From Flavobacteriales bacterium (lineage in GTDB: Bacteria; Bacteroidota; Bacteroidia; Flavobacteriales_D; Sanyastnellaceae), in contig JAKMCW010000093.1 in the NCBI GenBank assembly GCA_022428205.1, forward strand, positions 1-64,000: a DNA stretch of 64,000 nucleotides, written 5' to 3'. The position numbers were made by a program, and so were the translations under genes. Of this stretch, positions 43,109 through 53,736 are shown piece after piece; the first letter of the stretch is position 1, and each line of letters starts with the position of its first letter. The notes below the pieces were generated by a model. It did no database searches. It saw only the letters and a program-made list of their open reading frames with translations, and was not told the origin of the DNA.

Positions 43109-43756
43109 TTAGGGCTGCAATCTGCGCCTCGTCCATCCGTGACCCGATTTGCGGGCCACGAGGCGGTCGTGCATGCGACCTGGACGCCCTTGCCAAAATT
43201 CGATTTCTTCGATGTGCAGCAAAAAGCCGCCCCAATGCGGCGGGCGCGGCACAGCTCCTTCAAACTTGTCTTCAAAGGCCGCATAAGCATTTTCCAATGC
43301 ACTGCGTCCCTCTACTTCCTCGCTTTGGGACGACGCCCAGGCGCCAATTTGGCTCGCCCGAGGCCGGGATTCGAAGTAACGGTCACTGTCGGCCTCTGGC
43401 ATTTGCTCAACCCGGCCCCGCACCCGCAGCTGTCGCTCCAAATCGCGCCAAAAAAAGGTGGCTGCGGCGTGGGGGTGCGCCAGCAACTCGCGGCCCTTTG
43501 CGCTTTGGTAATTGGTGTAAAAAGTCAGGGCGTCTCCGGCATCGTTGGATTGGACTGCCCTCAACAAAACGATGCGGGCATTCGGATGTCCATCCGAGCC
43601 CACCGTCGACAGCGTCATCGCGTTGTAATCGTCGGGGTCAGATGCTTTGGCCTCCTCCAGCCAGAGCGTCAGCAACTGCAACACATCAAAGCCTTCCGCA
43701 TCGTCCAAGCTGCCCTTGGCGTACACCTTTCTGTCGTCAAATGCTGTCATAGCCAA
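43109..43756 (-). CDS. pdxH: Pyridoxamine 5'-phosphate oxidase
   Basis: DPDDYNAMTLSTVGSDGHPNARIVLLR, FYTNYQSAKGRELLAHPHAAATFFWRDLERQLRVRGRVEQMPEADSDRYFESRPRASQIGAWASSQSE. Confidence 0.95.
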   Translation of the reverse strand: MAMTAFDDRKVYAKGSLDDAEGFDVLQLLTLWLEEAKASDPDDYNAMTLSTVGSDGHPNARIVLLRAVQSNDAGDALTFYTNYQSAKGRELLAHPHAAATFFWRDLERQLRVRGRVEQMPEADSDRYFESRPRASQIGAWASSQSEEVEGRSALENAYAAFEDKFEGAVPRPPHWGGFLLHIEEIEFWQGRPGRMHDRLVARKSGHGWTRRRLQP

Positions 43757-45172
43757 TCAACCGGCTTGCTCGGCGGATGTTTCCTCGCTGGGCTTTTCTA
43801 CCACCAGCAGCAAATTGCCCCCGCTCTCCGAAAGGTCCAGCGCTTGGCCGGACTGCTCCACATATCCGATGCGGTAAACCTCGACCACCCTCAGGCCACA
43901 TGAGGCGACAAGGTCCTCCATGCGCTCCCGGGTGGTGTAGTGCAAGAACGCCACAGCCTCACCATCGTGTCGCTTGTAAAAGACATCGCCACATTCATAG
44001 CCCTCTTCCTGAAGGTTCAGCTCGTCAAAAATCCTAACAGCTTCAGGGCCCCATTCATGAGGGTTCTCCACGTTGAAGACGTCGAAATAGAACCTCCCCC
44101 CTGGTTTCAGTGCTTGAAAGACTTTAGACAAGCTGCGCTTGCGCTCTGCACGGTTGGGTATGTGGCCGAAGGCATAGAGAAAGGCTATGGCGTCATAAGC
44201 ACCCGGAGTCACGGTGCATTCGTTCCACATTCCGATGCGCGCATCGACCCCGCGCTCCTTGGCATGCTGAACCATAGAGCTGCTGATGTCCACGCCCTCA
44301 AGCACATAGTCCAGGCCAGATTGCTGGCGGATATCGACCGCGCGGCGCCCAGTCCCACACCCAATGTGCAACATGCGTTTTGGGCCACATTCTCTCAGGT
44401 CTTTGGCGATGATGCTGTCGATGCTGCCGGTATACAGCCTGCGCTTTTCGCTCTCATCATCCAGGTGGTCGTACAGTTCCGCTTGCTCCGCATAGTAAGC
44501 GGAAATAGAGGACATGATGGCTCCACGATCCGGTTTGGGAATCAAGGGGTACAGCATATGCGTGCTGTTGCCCGGCGCATCGCTCATCGGGATATAGGTA
44601 AAGGCCCCCTTTTCCAGACTTCTGAACCCTGCTTCATCCTGATGGAATGAGGCCGTCGTTGCGGTGGCATTCAATTCGCCACGCCACCCTTTCTCGGCAT
44701 CGAACAACACCATCCCATCCAAGTCCTCCAAGGCTGGTGCATAGAAATGGACCGTGATCAGGGGCGATTCTGCGCTGGGGTTTACAATCTTATGGATGGT
44801 ACCGTCGGGCTCCGGCAAAACACCTCCTGCCCTCACCCTCAGCGCGCCCTTTTCACGAAGCTCTTTTCGCTCGGCGTCAAATGTGTATTCGACATTTTCC
44901 ACTTCTCCTTCAAGGCACAACACATAGCCCCAAAACCCCTCGTGATGGTGAATGGCACTTTCAACGCCCGGTGGCCAATGCAACACCACGACCTCGAAAG
45001 GATCCATGAGCAAAATATTCCGGGCATAGTTTCCAGAACCCGCGTCGTATTCAGGCACGGTTGTCGCGTAGTCGAGGGCCGAGCAATCGATGCCCCGAAC
45101 AAAACGCCCCAGCCAATCGAAATCGAAGTCTGCCGGGGTGTGTTGCCGTATTTGCTCTACGAGGTTCCGCAT
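43757..45172 (-). CDS. Bifunctional-looking fusion: cysteine dioxygenase type I domain and class I SAM-dependent methyltransferase domain
   Basis: N-term: YARNILLMDPFEVVVLHWPPGVESAIHHHEGFWGYVLCLEGEVENVEYTF and GTIHKIVNPSAESPLITVHFYAPAL (CDO cupin). C-term: MLHIGCGTGRRAVDIRQQ...YDAIAFLYAFGHIPNRAERKRSLSKVFQALKPGGRFYFDVFN (methyltransferase). Confidence 0.88.
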   Translation of the reverse strand: MRNLVEQIRQHTPADFDFDWLGRFVRGIDCSALDYATTVPEYDAGSGNYARNILLMDPFEVVVLHWPPGVESAIHHHEGFWGYVLCLEGEVENVEYTFDAERKELREKGALRVRAGGVLPEPDGTIHKIVNPSAESPLITVHFYAPALEDLDGMVLFDAEKGWRGELNATATTASFHQDEAGFRSLEKGAFTYIPMSDAPGNSTHMLYPLIPKPDRGAIMSSISAYYAEQAELYDHLDDESEKRRLYTGSIDSIIAKDLRECGPKRMLHIGCGTGRRAVDIRQQSGLDYVLEGVDISSSMVQHAKERGVDARIGMWNECTVTPGAYDAIAFLYAFGHIPNRAERKRSLSKVFQALKPGGRFYFDVFNVENPHEWGPEAVRIFDELNLQEEGYECGDVFYKRHDGEAVAFLHYTTRERMEDLVASCGLRVVEVYRIGYVEQSGQALDLSESGGNLLLVVEKPSEETSAEQAG

Positions 45173-45302: not shown

Positions 45303-45521
45303 ATGTCCAACCGACGCATCGTGAGCTACGAGAAGCTCGAACAACCCATCCGCAAGCTGCTCAAGTCCCGCTATCCTGACGGATTTGACGGCCAAACCTT
45401 CAATCTGCGCCTTCCCACAAGCAAGGAAGTCTTCAAGATGATCCGGGTCGAAATGGAAGGGATTCAATACATGGTCAAAGTAGGCCCCGCCATCGAAGGG
45501 GTTGACTATACCATCGACTGA
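45303..45521 (+). CDS. Small conserved-looking protein of unknown function (72 aa)
   Basis: MSNRRIVSYEKLEQPIRKLLKSRYPDGFDGQTFNLRLPTSKEVFKMIRVEMEGIQYMVKVGPAIEGVDYTID; independent ORF with its own downstream terminator. Confidence 0.72.
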   Translation: MSNRRIVSYEKLEQPIRKLLKSRYPDGFDGQTFNLRLPTSKEVFKMIRVEMEGIQYMVKVGPAIEGVDYTID

Positions 45522-46941: not shown

Positions 46942-49563
46942 TCAGTCCTGCTTCACCAAACGGCTGACGGCCCCCATGCCCTGCTGGTCCATGGCCCGGA
47001 TCAGGTAAACGCCCGCAGGTTTACCTGCAAGTGTCCCTTGTACTACACTGGATTCGACCTGCAGCAAGTCAACCCTCCTGCCCGTCACATCGGTCAATTC
47101 CAATTGACCATTGAAAGGACGTGAGAACTGCACACGGTATGTGTCTCGGGTGGGATTCGGAGACACCGCAAACTGCGGAACCTGCCATTCTTGGAGGCCG
47201 ACAGGCACAGACACCACAATACTGGTCGTGCATCCATCACCACCGGTCACTTCCAAGGTCCAATCACCCGCGCCCAAATCATCGGGATCCTCTGCGCCGG
47301 TAGAGCCTGTGGGCCCTGTCCACTCGAAGCTATAAGGCTCAACACCACCCGTAACCGTCACGGCAATCTCTCCGTTTTCTTCATCAGGATTGGCGCCTCC
47401 GATTTCATCAACAATGATTTCCATTCCCTCTGGATCCACCACTGCAATGCTCGCTGTATCGGAACACGTATTGGACCCTGTGGTCGTCAAAACATTGACA
47501 TTGACGAAATATTCCCCTGCTGACAAGCCCAGAAAGTTGCCGTCGATGCTGGCCGGTTCTCCATTGAGCTGATAGGACGTGGCCATCACATTTCCAGCCA
47601 CGAAAGCTGACACACTTCCGTCGTCTCCTCCAGCGCATGCCGGCGAAGAAGCCACCAAGAACAAGGATACATCGGGTGCTGCCACCACCGAGAAGACTTC
47701 CACAGCGCTGCAAGACGAATCTCCATCAAATACCTCCAACAGATAGTCTCCCGGGATGAGGCCATCAAAGACCCCGTCCGTCCACGCACCGGAACCCGCA
47801 AATCCGGGAGCAGTAAGCGCATAGAACACCGAATCGGTCAATGCCGAATCCAACACCACCAGGGCTGTGCCATCCAATGTTTCGAAGCAAGATTCATTGG
47901 TCACTACCGGGTCAGAGAGGACCAAGTCACAGTAGGTACAACTTCCATCTTCCTCGGTGGCCCCGGGGTTGAAGTTGGATGCGGCTGCATCTGTGCACCC
48001 CACACATGAAGTGAATTCACAATTGCCGGCATCCAAAATGGCCGCGGCATCATAGTTGCACGCCTCAGGATCCAAACACCCTGCACAAGAGCTGTATTCG
48101 CACAGCCCACTTTCAATGGTCGCATCCGGACTGAAGTTGCACGCATTGCTGTCCGTACAGCCATAGCAGTTGAAGTCGCACAGCGTCAAGTCATTGATGA
48201 CCGCCGTGCTGTCGAAATTGCAAGCGGCGAGAAGACCACAACCGGCGCAAGAACTGTAATCACAGGATCCGTCATCAAACGTGCCAAAGGGGTTGAAATT
48301 ACAGGCCAAGGAATCGAGACAAGCCCCAACCTCTACACCATCGCAAATCAAAACGAAGTCAAAGCCCCCTACCGCTGGCGTTACGGCGTTGGAACCGCTT
48401 ACATGCAGGAAGTACTCCACCCCCTCCTCGCTCTCCCAGTCCACAGAGGATGAGAGGAAATTCTCGAAGCACGGCTCAGCAAAGAAGTTGATTTCATCCT
48501 GATCGTCGTTGCCCCCAACACAGTTGAGGTTCCCACAATCGCCTTCGTAGACACTCAAATAGGTGTCGTACTCTGTTTCCTCAAAACACATGGTCGCCCG
48601 CAGCGTGTCACCGGTGCCCATGATGGTGTACCACAATCCACCATGGTAATACTGCCCAATGTTGTATTGGTCGCAAAACTCAGATTCGGTGGTATCCGCG
48701 CAGACGGTTGTGCCAGAAATCACCTGTCCACAGGCCACCGGGTCGGCGAAACCGCACTCGTCGTTGTCCACTGGAAGACAGAATCCCGCGCAATCAAACC
48801 CAGGTTGGGCATAGAAACAGCTGCCATCCTCCTCGGTGTATACGGGCGCATAATTGCACGCTTCCGGATCCGTGCAGCCTGGGAATTCAAAGGGGTCACA
48901 CACGCCATCCTCATCCTCATCACAAAGGCAATTGCCCTCACAGTCGAAACAGAAAAATGGATACTCACATGAGCCGTCGTCCTCCGTGGCTTCAGGGTTA
49001 TAGTTGCACGCCGTTTCGTCCATGCACCCCGGCGTGGCACAACTCGGGTCAAGCATGCCCTGCAGCGTGATCATGCCACCCTCAACAGGAAGAGAGAATA
49101 CCGGGCTTTCCAACAGATTGATGGCTGTTGATGTGTCCCCCACTGACCAGACGATTGAGGCCGAATCCAATGGGAAGCCCGAGAGATCAAATGACACGTT
49201 CATCTCCGAACCGCCCGTATTGACCTCCAAGGTGAACAGCACTGCGCTGTCACCATTGGACGGCATGGCATGGATCACCAACAGGTTGCTTTCGGCTGAC
49301 AGACAGGCGTAGCTCAGCGCACTGTCCACCGTGCACAGCGAATCCAAACCGGCATCGAAGCCCAGCGTTGCAGCTGTATCCAACACCAACATCAGTGAAG
49401 TGGTATCCGACATGTGTTCCACGACAATGGGAACATTCCATTGGGGAGCGCACTCTTGGGCTGATGCTTTTTGCGGCATTGCAGCCGAAGAAAGCAATCC
49501 GAACAATACACCGGCGATGGTCATTCCCCTCCCCCTTTTGGAATTCGATGTGGTCGTTTTCAT
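46942..49563 (-). CDS. T9SS-sorted secreted protein with seven GCTDxxACNYD Cys-rich modules and SprB-like repeat
   Basis: Start MKTTTSNSKRGRGMTIAGVLFGLLSSAAMPQKASAQ; modules such as GCMDETACNYNPEATEDDGSC; C-terminal VSPNPTRDTYRVQFSRPFNGQLELTDVTGRRV...GVYLIRAMD (sorting domain). Confidence 0.88.
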   Translation of the reverse strand: MKTTTSNSKRGRGMTIAGVLFGLLSSAAMPQKASAQECAPQWNVPIVVEHMSDTTSLMLVLDTAATLGFDAGLDSLCTVDSALSYACLSAESNLLVIHAMPSNGDSAVLFTLEVNTGGSEMNVSFDLSGFPLDSASIVWSVGDTSTAINLLESPVFSLPVEGGMITLQGMLDPSCATPGCMDETACNYNPEATEDDGSCEYPFFCFDCEGNCLCDEDEDGVCDPFEFPGCTDPEACNYAPVYTEEDGSCFYAQPGFDCAGFCLPVDNDECGFADPVACGQVISGTTVCADTTESEFCDQYNIGQYYHGGLWYTIMGTGDTLRATMCFEETEYDTYLSVYEGDCGNLNCVGGNDDQDEINFFAEPCFENFLSSSVDWESEEGVEYFLHVSGSNAVTPAVGGFDFVLICDGVEVGACLDSLACNFNPFGTFDDGSCDYSSCAGCGLLAACNFDSTAVINDLTLCDFNCYGCTDSNACNFSPDATIESGLCEYSSCAGCLDPEACNYDAAAILDAGNCEFTSCVGCTDAAASNFNPGATEEDGSCTYCDLVLSDPVVTNESCFETLDGTALVVLDSALTDSVFYALTAPGFAGSGAWTDGVFDGLIPGDYLLEVFDGDSSCSAVEVFSVVAAPDVSLFLVASSPACAGGDDGSVSAFVAGNVMATSYQLNGEPASIDGNFLGLSAGEYFVNVNVLTTTGSNTCSDTASIAVVDPEGMEIIVDEIGGANPDEENGEIAVTVTGGVEPYSFEWTGPTGSTGAEDPDDLGAGDWTLEVTGGDGCTTSIVVSVPVGLQEWQVPQFAVSPNPTRDTYRVQFSRPFNGQLELTDVTGRRVDLLQVESSVVQGTLAGKPAGVYLIRAMDQQGMGAVSRLVKQD

Positions 49564-49603
49564 GGTACTATAATTTCGGCAATTCTGCCGGTTTAATAAA
49601 ATG

Positions 49604-49630
49604 AAAACGCCGACCAATGGCCGGCGTTTT
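49604..49630 (-). terminator. Intrinsic terminator after the 1360-aa cargo gene
   Basis: AAAACGCCG-N9-CGGCGTTTT. Confidence 0.7.
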
Positions 49631-49653
49631 CTAATCACTTGCAGGTTCGGAGG

Positions 49654-52600
49654 TTAGTGGCGTACCACCACACGTTGTGTGGCCATGGCATCTTCAACCG
49701 TGACACGCACTTGGTAAACTCCGTCAGCCAAACCACCCAAATCGAGTGGCATCCGGTTGACGATGTTCAACGCCTCTTGACGGAATACGCGACGGCCAGC
49801 GCCATCAAACACTTCCAAAATGGCATCGTTTACAGCTTGTCCCAATTCCATGACCAGTTGCCCATTTGTGGGGTTTGGCATAAAGGAGACGGTCAAGGCA
49901 CCTGTCACTTCAATCAATCCGACCGTCGTCAACGTTACAACTTCTGATTCTGTACAACCGTTTTCGTCAGTCACGGTCAAGGTGTACGTTCCATCGGTCA
50001 ATCCAGCGATGTCTTCTGTGTCGTAAGGGCCATTGGGTCCTTCCCAGCTAAATCCAAGGTCCCCTGTTCCACCTTCTACAGAGACAGAGACTTCACCGTT
50101 GGGGGCATTGTCAGGATCCACAGTGGCGTCTACCGTGATCACGATAGCAGCAGGGTCTTCCACATCAGCTGCAATGTCTGCCTCACAACCGTTGGCATCG
50201 GTAGCAAACACTGTGTAAGGACCGGCGTCCAGTCCAGTGAAGTTTCCATCCACATTGCTGTCTGCTCCCAATTCAAAGGTGATCAAGCCAGTACCACCTT
50301 CTCCTGATACGAGGATAGAGCCGTCATCACCTCCATTACACAGAGGGTCTGTTGCAAATGCAATGAGCACGATGGGTGAAGGTTCAGTTACACTGACTTC
50401 AAGGGTGTCTGAACACATCAGCGAGTCCATCGCAATCACCTTGTAAGAACCTCCCGCCAACTGGTCGAAAACCAAGTTGTTTTGGAAGGGGTCTCCTTCC
50501 AACGCATAGGATACGGTTCCAAAACCACCGGTTGATCCTTCAATCGAAATGCTGCCGTTGGCATCCCCAGCACAAGCCAAGTCCACCACAGTCACCGCAG
50601 GATCAATCTCCAAGTCACAATAGACACAAGTCTCATCGTCAATGGTAGCCGTTGGATCATAGTTGGCGGCAGACTCATCGGTACAACCCAAACAGCTGTA
50701 ATCACACAGTGTCACGTCATAGTCCGTGGCATTTGGATCGTAGTTACAAGCACCGTCATCCAAACAACCTGGGATCTCATCTTCATCGCAGATCAAGTCA
50801 CCGTCGGCGTCGTTGATGCAGTTTCCATCACAGTCCACATAAGGAGAACCGTAGAGGTCAACTGGATAGAGGCAACCTTCGTCAATGGTGGCTGTGGCAT
50901 CGTAGTTACAGGCCATATCGTCCGTACACCCTGCGCAAGTGGTGTAGTCACAACTGCCGTCATCTTCGGTGGCCTCAGGGTTGTAGTTACAAGCATCTTC
51001 ATAAATGCAGCCATCAACTTCGGCTTCATCACAGATGCCGTCGCCATCAGCGTCATTCAAGCAAGCGCCTGTACAATCGTAGTAATCAAATCCATACAGG
51101 TCGATTGGGAACGTACAAGAGGAAGCGTCGTTGATGGTCGCCTCACTGTCATAGTTACAGGCCAACTCGTTGAGACATCCTGCGCAGCTCTCGCTCTCAC
51201 AACTGCCGTCATCAGTAGAAGCCAATGGGTTGTAGTTGCAAGAAACCAAGTTGGTACAACCTGAGATGGCGGGCACAAGCACAGCGTCAATCACATGAAC
51301 AACTCCATTCTCGGCAATCAAATCTGCAATGATGATTTCCGAATCGTTGATGAAAATGCCACCATTGTCAAAGGAGATGGTCGCGGTTTCTCCGTTGATC
51401 ATCTCAATCGGCATTCCGTCAGAAAGCATATCACTGGTCACTGAGTCTGCTGCAACGTGATAGGTCAAGATGGCCGCCAATGCCTCTGGATTGCTCAAGA
51501 CATAATCCACGACCATGTCTGGAAGCGCACCTACTGCTGCGTCTGTTGGTGCGAACACCGTCCATACCTCGTCATATGTCAGCGTGCTGTCCAATCCAGC
51601 AAGCACAATGAGGTCCTCCAAAACGGTGTGCACTTCACTGGCTGCAATGATGTCGAAGACGCTTGGAGCTGGATACTCACAAGAACCGTCTTCGTCCGTC
51701 GCAGTATCATCGTAGTTCAACGCCGTAACATCGGTACAACCAGGCAGCTCGTCCTCATCACAAACACCATCCTCATCAGCATCATTCAGGCAATTGCCAT
51801 CGCAATCGACATTGTCCACGCCGTATACGTCATCGGGGAACAAGCAGTCCTCGTCTTCAGCCACGCAAGCATCGCCAATGTTGAAATTGAAGAACAACGC
51901 GTTGGCACCAATGCCATTTTCAAATACCTGAACGTAGAAGTTGCCCTCCACTGCGCCGTCGGTGGTCAACTGAGCCACGAGCACTTGTTGGTCACTGCTG
52001 TTGGCTGCGATACCATTGGCATCACCGTTCAAGGCGAACCATCCACCGCCTACGTTGTCGTCGATCACAATGCTTGCGCCCAAGGCACCAAAGCCTGGCT
52101 CAAAGTTGGTCGACCAGGGGTTTTCACTGCCCTGTACCGTTGAAATGGCCGCCTCACCAATGCTGGCATCTGGTGCTTCGCTCAATCCGATGGTGACCCA
52201 TGAGTCATACTGGAGGTCAGGGAATGTGCCGAAGAGGAACGGCGTGATGGCGTTAGGGGTCACCCCTCCGAGTTCGTCTTGATAAAACCCAGTGGTCGTA
52301 GCAATGGAGACTGGGTTAGATACATCACCCGTCACGGAGCTCAAAAAGTCTGCAGGGTTGGCACACTTCACATAGTAACGGTAAGTGGTCATGCCCGCCA
52401 AAGCGCCCGTCGTGTGTGTGGCTACGGTATCCACGATCAAGCAGTAGTCCGCTTCTACAACTACTGCAGATGGATCGTAGTTACAAGCAGTGGGGTCTCC
52501 ACAGCCTTCTTCCTCATCACAAAGACCATCATTGTCTTCATCGTTGATGCAGTTGCCATCACAATCGAGGTAACTGGCGGCGGGATAAGTGCAGGAACCA

Positions 52601-53736
52601 TCATCCACAGTGACAGTCATGTCATAGTTACAGGCTTCTGAATCGGTACAGCCATTGCAGCTAAAGTCACATGAACCATCGTCAATGGTAGCTGAAGCAT
52701 CGTAGTTACAGGCTGACCCGTCAGTACATCCTGCGCAACTCGCAAATTCACAGCTGCCGTCATCTTGGGTGGCATCTTCATCATAGTTGCAGGCCATGGA
52801 ATCTGTACAGCCCACACAACTCGTGTATTCACAAGAGCCGTCGTCATCTGTAGCGTTCTCATTGTAGTTGCATGCGGTCATGTCCGTACAACCGTTGGTT
52901 TCGAACTCATCACAGAGCCCATCACCATCGGTGTCATTGATGCACTCACCTGCGCAATCGAGATAGTCTTCCGCTGGATAAGTACATGAACCATCGTCGG
53001 CACCAGCGTTCTCATCATAGTTGCAAGCCGTAGCATCGGTGCATCCTTCCGTCACCTCTCCGGGCCAGAAGAATGTAGGCCGCAAAGCTCCGTCGTCACC
53101 TGGCACTTCGTTCAATCCATCACCATTGATGAAGATTTGCGAGTAGAACTGAAGGGACAAATCTCCCGTTGTCGTGAATTGCCCTGCGAGCACTCTTAGG
53201 TCTGTTCCGGCCACACCATTGGCGTCACCGTTCAGCGCATACCATGCTCCCCCAATGGGGTCGTCAATGGCTACGTTCTGTCCTGGTGCGCCGCCACCTG
53301 GTTCGAATGCGGTAACCCATTGGTTGCTTCCGGCCTGCACAGTGGCAACAGCCGCTTCACCGATGGCTGCATTTGGAACACCTTCGAGACCAATGGTCAC
53401 CCAAGAGTCAAACTCCAAGTCAGGATAAACTGCAAAAAGCAAGCTATTGATGCCGTTTGGCGTCGCTGCACCCAATGCTGCGTGATAGAAATCCGTCGTC
53501 GTCGTGATGTACGTTGGATTGTTGCTATCTCCCGAGATCGAACTCAGAAAGTCGTCCTCGTTCTCCATGGTGATGTAGGCCCGGTATGTCGTGTATCCCG
53601 TGAGGTCCACAACGCCAAGGGCGCCAGTCAAAACGCCAATGTTGTCGTTTTCTACCTCAACCACCAGCCCATATTCTTGGGCAGACATCAGTGAGGGTAA
53701 GAGGCACAAGGCCAAAAGGAGCTTATTCAGCTTCAT
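49654..53736 (-). CDS. Giant T9SS-sorted secreted protein: two copies of an unrecognised ~200-aa domain, 13 GCTDxxACNYD modules, FAS1 domain, SprB-like repeats
   Basis: MKLNKLLLALCLLPSLMSAQ signal; 13 GC..xACNY modules counted; FAS1 at VFDIIAASEVHTVLEDLIVLAGLDSTLT...VFAPTDAAVGAL...GVVHVIDAVLVP; C-terminal VSFMPNPTNGQLVMELGQ...GVYQVRVTVEDAMATQRVVVRH. Confidence 0.9.
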   Translation of the reverse strand: MKLNKLLLALCLLPSLMSAQEYGLVVEVENDNIGVLTGALGVVDLTGYTTYRAYITMENEDDFLSSISGDSNNPTYITTTTDFYHAALGAATPNGINSLLFAVYPDLEFDSWVTIGLEGVPNAAIGEAAVATVQAGSNQWVTAFEPGGGAPGQNVAIDDPIGGAWYALNGDANGVAGTDLRVLAGQFTTTGDLSLQFYSQIFINGDGLNEVPGDDGALRPTFFWPGEVTEGCTDATACNYDENAGADDGSCTYPAEDYLDCAGECINDTDGDGLCDEFETNGCTDMTACNYNENATDDDGSCEYTSCVGCTDSMACNYDEDATQDDGSCEFASCAGCTDGSACNYDASATIDDGSCDFSCNGCTDSEACNYDMTVTVDDGSCTYPAASYLDCDGNCINDEDNDGLCDEEEGCGDPTACNYDPSAVVVEADYCLIVDTVATHTTGALAGMTTYRYYVKCANPADFLSSVTGDVSNPVSIATTTGFYQDELGGVTPNAITPFLFGTFPDLQYDSWVTIGLSEAPDASIGEAAISTVQGSENPWSTNFEPGFGALGASIVIDDNVGGGWFALNGDANGIAANSSDQQVLVAQLTTDGAVEGNFYVQVFENGIGANALFFNFNIGDACVAEDEDCLFPDDVYGVDNVDCDGNCLNDADEDGVCDEDELPGCTDVTALNYDDTATDEDGSCEYPAPSVFDIIAASEVHTVLEDLIVLAGLDSTLTYDEVWTVFAPTDAAVGALPDMVVDYVLSNPEALAAILTYHVAADSVTSDMLSDGMPIEMINGETATISFDNGGIFINDSEIIIADLIAENGVVHVIDAVLVPAISGCTNLVSCNYNPLASTDDGSCESESCAGCLNELACNYDSEATINDASSCTFPIDLYGFDYYDCTGACLNDADGDGICDEAEVDGCIYEDACNYNPEATEDDGSCDYTTCAGCTDDMACNYDATATIDEGCLYPVDLYGSPYVDCDGNCINDADGDLICDEDEIPGCLDDGACNYDPNATDYDVTLCDYSCLGCTDESAANYDPTATIDDETCVYCDLEIDPAVTVVDLACAGDANGSISIEGSTGGFGTVSYALEGDPFQNNLVFDQLAGGSYKVIAMDSLMCSDTLEVSVTEPSPIVLIAFATDPLCNGGDDGSILVSGEGGTGLITFELGADSNVDGNFTGLDAGPYTVFATDANGCEADIAADVEDPAAIVITVDATVDPDNAPNGEVSVSVEGGTGDLGFSWEGPNGPYDTEDIAGLTDGTYTLTVTDENGCTESEVVTLTTVGLIEVTGALTVSFMPNPTNGQLVMELGQAVNDAILEVFDGAGRRVFRQEALNIVNRMPLDLGGLADGVYQVRVTVEDAMATQRVVVRH
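50640..53060 (-). repeat. Diverged tandem repeats encoding Cys-rich GCTDxxACNYDxxATxDDGSC modules
   Basis: Recurring plus-strand pattern (a/t)tcgtagttacaagc / catagttacaggc ... gtacatcc/gtacaacc across the gene. Confidence 0.85.

What the first reader, a model, noticed from the sequence alone, without database searches (positions are those of the whole stretch)
43109..45172. Cysteine dioxygenase fused to a SAM-dependent methyltransferase, abutting pdxH
The N-terminal half keeps the expected CDO catalytic set by motif alignment: Arg in YARNILL, two His in HHHEGFWGY, third His in TIHKIV, and Tyr in VHFYAP, with Gly at the position of the crosslinked Cys as in bacterial-type CDOs. The C-terminal half has a GCGTG SAM motif and downstream LKPGGRFYFDVF. 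I know of no standard pathway coupling thiol dioxygenation with methylation on one chain. Adjacency to pdxH (1-bp spacing) hints at a link to PLP-dependent sulfinate or amino-acid chemistry. It could methylate a sulfinate-derived product, or act on a related thiol such as 3-mercaptopropionate or a small-molecule thiol.
Basis: partly seen in the sequence, partly recalled or inferred. Interest (0 to 1): 0.75.

Follow-up and report, generated by a model that had tools for sequence, protein, structure and literature searches.

The report
Cysteine dioxygenase–methyltransferase fusion enzyme family
This bacterial gene encodes one protein that joins a cysteine-oxidising enzyme to a methyl-transferring enzyme; the same fusion is conserved across several families of Bacteroidota and often sits in an operon with the vitamin B6 gene pdxH, but what it makes is not known.

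Summary
One 471-aa ORF (43757-45172, minus) carries an N-terminal thiol dioxygenase (Pfam CDO_I) and a C-terminal class I SAM methyltransferase, followed 6 bp later by pdxH. It is not an assembly artefact: full-length fusions occur in 36 searched genomes from eight family-level groups of the class. Across 42 homologues the three iron-binding His and the catalytic Tyr are invariant and the substrate Arg is kept in 41, so the enzyme is 'Arg-type', expected to prefer L-cysteine over 3-mercaptopropionate. Both halves are under purifying selection. Four homologues lack the methyltransferase, one of them still followed by pdxH, so that link seems to belong to the dioxygenase. A second, longer CDO+methyltransferase fusion exists in two other families. 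I found no paper describing such a fusion. Most likely it oxidises cysteine to cysteine sulfinate; the methyl acceptor, perhaps that product or a derivative, is inference only. New variant of known kinds; moderate interest.

The parts
43757..45172 (-). CDO-methyltransferase fusion gene, 471 aa
   Evidence: ORF; Pfam CDO_I and Methyltransf_25; homologues over the whole length
44693..45172 (-). cupin thiol dioxygenase domain, residues 1-160; active-site Y49, R51, H75, H77, H127, H142, Y144, P146
   Evidence: Pfam, PDB sequence matches, fold matches, conservation in 42 sequences
44528..44692 (-). connecting segment, residues 161-215; its first part is kept in homologues that lack the methyltransferase, so it belongs to the dioxygenase
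   Evidence: alignment
43760..44527 (-). class I SAM methyltransferase domain, residues 216-471; motif I GCGTGRR at residues 271-277, D295, E373-W374-G375, H411-Y412
   Evidence: Pfam, fold matches, conservation
43109..43750 (-). pdxH, pyridoxamine 5'-phosphate oxidase, directly downstream on the same strand
   Evidence: NCBIfam TIGR00558, 236 bits against a cut-off of 180; adjacency in other genomes

Best explanation
A bifunctional enzyme of cysteine metabolism. The N-terminal Fe(II) cupin binds L-cysteine, holds its carboxylate with Arg51, and adds O2 to give cysteine sulfinate. The C-terminal domain transfers a methyl group from SAM to a small acceptor, most plausibly cysteine sulfinate or something made from it by a PLP enzyme. 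Shown here: one chain, both active-site sets conserved, purifying selection on both halves, conserved pdxH adjacency. From knowledge of the family: the dioxygenase reaction. Inferred: that cysteine is the physiological thiol, that the two reactions are sequential, and what is methylated and where. The pdxH coupling is best read as PLP supply next to an enzyme whose substrate can trap PLP (cysteine forms a thiazolidine with it; own knowledge) and whose product feeds PLP enzymes.
For: Catalytic residues of Arg-type CDO invariant or nearly so in 42 sequences; nearest solved structures are CDOs; methyltransferase motif I and a distinctive set of pocket-type residues invariant in 38 sequences; dN/dS 0.03-0.17 in both halves where measurable; full-length fusion in 36 genomes of eight family-level groups; pdxH directly downstream in 16 of 38 carriers with overlapping codons in several; a second CDO+methyltransferase architecture in two more families.
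Against: Four homologues (f86 and one f70 genus) lack the methyltransferase and one of them keeps pdxH, so the two activities need not be coupled. No methyltransferase subfamily model is reached. pdxH is not adjacent in over half of the carriers. No activity has been measured.
Confidence: 0.45

Rival explanations
1. The two domains share a chain only for joint expression or assembly: an ordinary Arg-type cysteine dioxygenase for cysteine disposal joined to a methyltransferase with an unrelated acceptor.
For: Homologues without the methyltransferase persist; the methyltransferase matches only generic families.
Against: The fusion is kept over deep divergence (39-52% identity between genera), and a second CDO+methyltransferase architecture exists.
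Confidence: 0.27
2. The methyltransferase acts on the same thiol (for example cysteine to S-methylcysteine), so that the two domains split cysteine between oxidation and methylation.
For: Both domains could see the same substrate pool; no direct evidence.
Against: No similarity above cut-off to thiol methyltransferase models was listed.
Confidence: 0.1
3. The methyltransferase domain is a SAM sensor that gates cysteine oxidation according to sulfur supply, with little or no methyl transfer.
For: SAM level reports sulfur sufficiency (own knowledge); the dioxygenase can exist without the domain.
Against: Besides the SAM motif, many residues outside it (Y333, H337, E373-W374, Y399, H411-Y412, Y437) are invariant, as expected of an acceptor site.
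Confidence: 0.1
4. The dioxygenase half acts on a different small thiol or does a different oxidation (as SbzM does on cysteine), and the fusion belongs to a specialised-metabolite route.
For: SbzM shows that a cysteine-using cupin need not stop at the sulfinate (PMC9113183).
Against: All Arg-type CDO residues are conserved; the neighbours are housekeeping genes, not a biosynthetic cluster.
Confidence: 0.07
5. The fusion is an assembly or frameshift artefact.
For: The window's genome is a fragmented draft (166 contigs, 84% complete).
Against: The same uninterrupted frame is found in 36 genomes, including near-complete ones of one or two contigs (G415, G439, G886).
Confidence: 0.01

Closest known systems
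Arg-type bacterial cysteine dioxygenase (B. subtilis YubC; PDB 3eqe, 4qm8, 4qm9 with Cys bound)
   Same: Cupin fold, three-His site, Arg and Tyr at the substrate-binding positions, Gly at the position of mammalian Cys93
   Different: YubC is a single-domain protein; here a methyltransferase is joined and a longer C-terminal segment is present
Mammalian cysteine dioxygenase type 1 (CDO1)
   Same: All catalytic residues other than Cys93
   Different: No Cys for the Cys-Tyr crosslink; methyltransferase joined
3-mercaptopropionate dioxygenase (Gln-type)
   Same: Same fold and iron site
   Different: Gln-type enzymes have Gln where Arg60 stands (own knowledge); here Arg51 is kept in 41 of 42
OvoA (5-histidylcysteine sulfoxide synthase with C-terminal methyltransferase)
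   Same: Precedent for a non-haem iron, cysteine- and O2-using domain fused to a C-terminal SAM methyltransferase
   Different: OvoA's iron domain is not a cupin; no such domain was found here, and the OvoA methyltransferase model scores far below its cut-off (16 against 170 bits)
SbzM cupin of altemicidin biosynthesis
   Same: A cysteine-using cupin oxygenase, in a cluster that also encodes a methyltransferase (PMC9113183)
   Different: Separate genes in an actinomycete cluster, with a different product; no sequence comparison was made here

Membership tests
Cysteine dioxygenase, Arg-type (CDO_I) | three-His iron site | tested here: met
   H75, H77, H127 invariant in 42 of 42
Cysteine dioxygenase, Arg-type (CDO_I) | Arg at position 60 and Tyr at 157 | tested here: met
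   R51 in 41 of 42, Y144 in 42 of 42
Cysteine dioxygenase, Arg-type (CDO_I) | family model above the curated cut-off | tested here: met
   36.6 bits against 23; all 16 members of alignment A4 match CDO_I
Cysteine dioxygenase, mammalian type | Cys93 for the Cys-Tyr crosslink | tested here: not met
   Gly in 42 of 42, as in bacterial CDOs
Cysteine dioxygenase, Arg-type (CDO_I) | O2-dependent oxidation of cysteine to cysteine sulfinate | not testable with these tools
   needs a biochemical assay
3-mercaptopropionate dioxygenase (Gln-type) | Gln instead of Arg at position 60 | tested here: not met
   Arg51 in 41 of 42 and Lys in one
Class I SAM methyltransferase | GxGxG motif I and an acidic residue after strand 2 | tested here: met
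   GCGTG; D295 in 36 of 38, Glu in 2; Pfam; fold matches
Class I SAM methyltransferase | SAM-dependent methyl transfer | not testable with these tools
   needs a biochemical assay
OvoA | N-terminal sulfoxide synthase domain and OvoA-type methyltransferase model above cut-off | tested here: not met
   no such Pfam domain; TIGR04345 16 bits against 170

The most novel reading that the evidence does not exclude
An undescribed bifunctional pathway enzyme that oxidises cysteine sulfur and methylates the product (or its PLP-derived product) on one chain, made together with PdxH, giving a methylated sulfinate or taurine-like metabolite in many uncultured Bacteroidota.
Probability: 0.35. Interest if true: 0.75.

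Novelty: new variant of a known kind. Interest (0 to 1): 0.5.

Why it matters
The characterised thiol dioxygenases are single-domain enzymes. A conserved natural fusion to a methyltransferase, with a conserved link to PLP supply, points to a step beyond cysteine sulfinate that no pathway I know of includes, and gives a compact enzyme with which to find it. CDO_I genes are rare in the phylum sample searched (9 of 398 genomes), and two of those nine are CDO+methyltransferase fusions of two different architectures.

Tried and rejected
Assembly artefact: rejected by uninterrupted homologues. Gln-type 3-mercaptopropionate dioxygenase: rejected on Arg51. OvoA membership: rejected. Assigning the methyltransferase to a named subfamily: the window protein reaches no NCBIfam cut-off and the 16 members match only generic families; the nearest stand-alone methyltransferases have uninformative neighbours. 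Pyridoxal decarboxylase as an obligate partner: present in 33 of 40 carriers but not among the neighbours of the fusion in the loci read. Separate origin of the second, longer fusion (L077, L116): not shown, since BLASTP aligns the window protein with L116_8 across both domains (46-380 with 60-452, E 1e-14). Plasmid records: only distant single CDOs, no fusion. Literature: no paper on a CDO-methyltransferase fusion found in the held library, which lacks most subscription journals; two CDO reviews looked up were not held.

Full report
What is there. The minus-strand ORF 43757-45172 encodes 471 aa. Pfam places CDO_I at residues 58-150 (E 4.3e-9) and Methyltransf_25 at 268-359 (E 4.2e-12), both above their cut-offs. 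The next gene on the same strand is pdxH (43109-43750), an equivalog-level match, 6 bp after the stop codon.

Dioxygenase half. The best solved relatives are B. subtilis YubC (3eqe, 4qm8) and mammalian CDO (with a 16-sequence profile E 7e-16). Aligned with rat CDO, residues Y49, R51, H75, H77, G82, H127, H142, Y144 and P146 stand at Y58, R60, H86, H88, C93, H140, H155, Y157 and P159. In 42 homologues these are invariant except R51 (41, one Lys) and H142 (41, one Asn). The kept Arg marks the Arg-type, expected to take L-cysteine; interactions of bound cysteine with Arg60 and Tyr157 are described in PMC8050391. A model of residues 1-179 built from six sequences has low confidence (mean pLDDT 59), yet its 43 best PDB matches are all thiol dioxygenases.

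Methyltransferase half. Residues 251-330 are modelled with pLDDT about 90 and match class I methyltransferases. Motif I is GCGTGRR, with D295 after strand 2. Y333, H337, E373-W374-G375, D396, Y399, H411-Y412 and Y437 are invariant in all sequences that carry the domain. The window protein reaches no NCBIfam methyltransferase cut-off, and the families matched by the 16 aligned members are generic, so the acceptor cannot be named from sequence.

Distribution. A pattern scan of genome contigs found five Flavobacteriales MAGs with 69-70% identity and the same genes around the fusion. A profile of the CDO half matched 36 of 199 genomes of the order; 31 of these are close homologues, of which 30 are full-length fusions and one (G545) is cut off by a contig end. 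A profile of the whole fusion found six more full-length fusions in five further families of the class (f67, f70, f87, f96, f111) among 395 genomes. That makes 36 genomes in eight family-level groups; three of the five MAGs are among them. A 398-genome phylum sample searched with the window protein found no other fusion, so the family is patchy and, as far as tested, confined to this class; other phyla were not searched with a sensitive method. Both halves are under purifying selection (dN/dS 0.03-0.17 where measurable; some pairs are saturated at synonymous sites).

Homologues without the methyltransferase. Four end after the connecting segment, at 191-198 aa: three in f86 and one in f70 (L110-L113). 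In the CDO tree the f86 ones fall among fused proteins of f70/f87 (support 83/88) and L113 sits nearby on a long branch, which favours secondary loss but does not prove it. No close match to the methyltransferase half was reported in these four genomes, three of which are incomplete.

Link to pdxH. Nearly all carriers have one full pdxH (38 of 40). It lies directly downstream of the CDO gene in 16: f1 (genera g1, g174, g176, g188), f59, f87 and f70, including L113, which lacks the methyltransferase. Stop and start codons overlap in L069, L072, L105 and L074 and abut in L109. The other neighbours differ between f1 and the f59/f87/f70 groups. The linkage is therefore old and probably operonic; it is absent in g178, g183, f57, f67, f96, f86 and in L108. 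That pdxH stays next to a CDO without a methyltransferase suggests that the PLP link belongs to cysteine oxidation rather than to methylation.

A second architecture. L077_5 (528 aa) and L116_8 (551 aa), from two families, share 51% identity and have CDO, a longer middle segment, then a methyltransferase; L079_3, L084_3 and L117_5 are relatives without the methyltransferase. The methyltransferase profiles of the two types align with 97% probability, and BLASTP aligns the window protein and L116_8 over both domains, so independent origin cannot be claimed.

How it most likely works. Shown: one chain, two conserved active sites, a probable operon with PdxH. From family knowledge: the N-terminal half should make cysteine sulfinate from cysteine and O2. 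Inferred: the methyltransferase acts on this product or on something derived from it. The main rivals are an unrelated methyl acceptor, competition for the thiol, and a SAM-sensing role.

Novelty. Each domain is of a known kind; the combination, its conservation and its link to pdxH are not described in any paper found, within a library that lacks most subscription journals. I call it a new variant of a known kind, with moderate interest because function is untested.

Noticed in passing
L077:8470-10056 (-) and L116:7555-9210 (+): A second, longer CDO+methyltransferase fusion (528 and 551 aa, 51% identical) with a middle segment of its own; L077 lies beside bioA/bioD/bioF-like genes and L116 beside YeeE/YedE-like transporter genes (neighbours read by eye).
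   Followed up: partly
L078:5083-7159 and L080:6179-7979: In other members of the order a single-domain CDO lies next to what reads, by eye, as a PLP-dependent decarboxylase gene, the expected cysteine-sulfinate-to-hypotaurine pair. This contrasts with the fusion's pdxH neighbour.
   Followed up: no
L058-L068 (genus g178): Fusion genes of this genus have no pdxH beside them, but a SulP-type anion transporter is repeatedly close by, in differing arrangements.
   Followed up: no
L105, L109, L113, L069, L072: In f59, f87 and f70 a family 2 glycosyltransferase-like gene follows pdxH, so the gene order CDO(-MT)-pdxH-GT spans three families.
   Followed up: no
window 45303-45521 (+): A small ORF (72 aa, ending VKVGPAIEGVDYTID) between the fusion and a PhoD-like phosphatase; a close homologue lies at the same place in L019 and the cluster includes the g1b locus L055. 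No known family was sought.
   Followed up: no
window 46942-53736 (-): Two very long secreted-type proteins with many Cys-containing GCTDxxACNY repeats and a C-terminal segment resembling a type IX sorting domain; similar repeats are found at the same place in the related loci.
   Followed up: no
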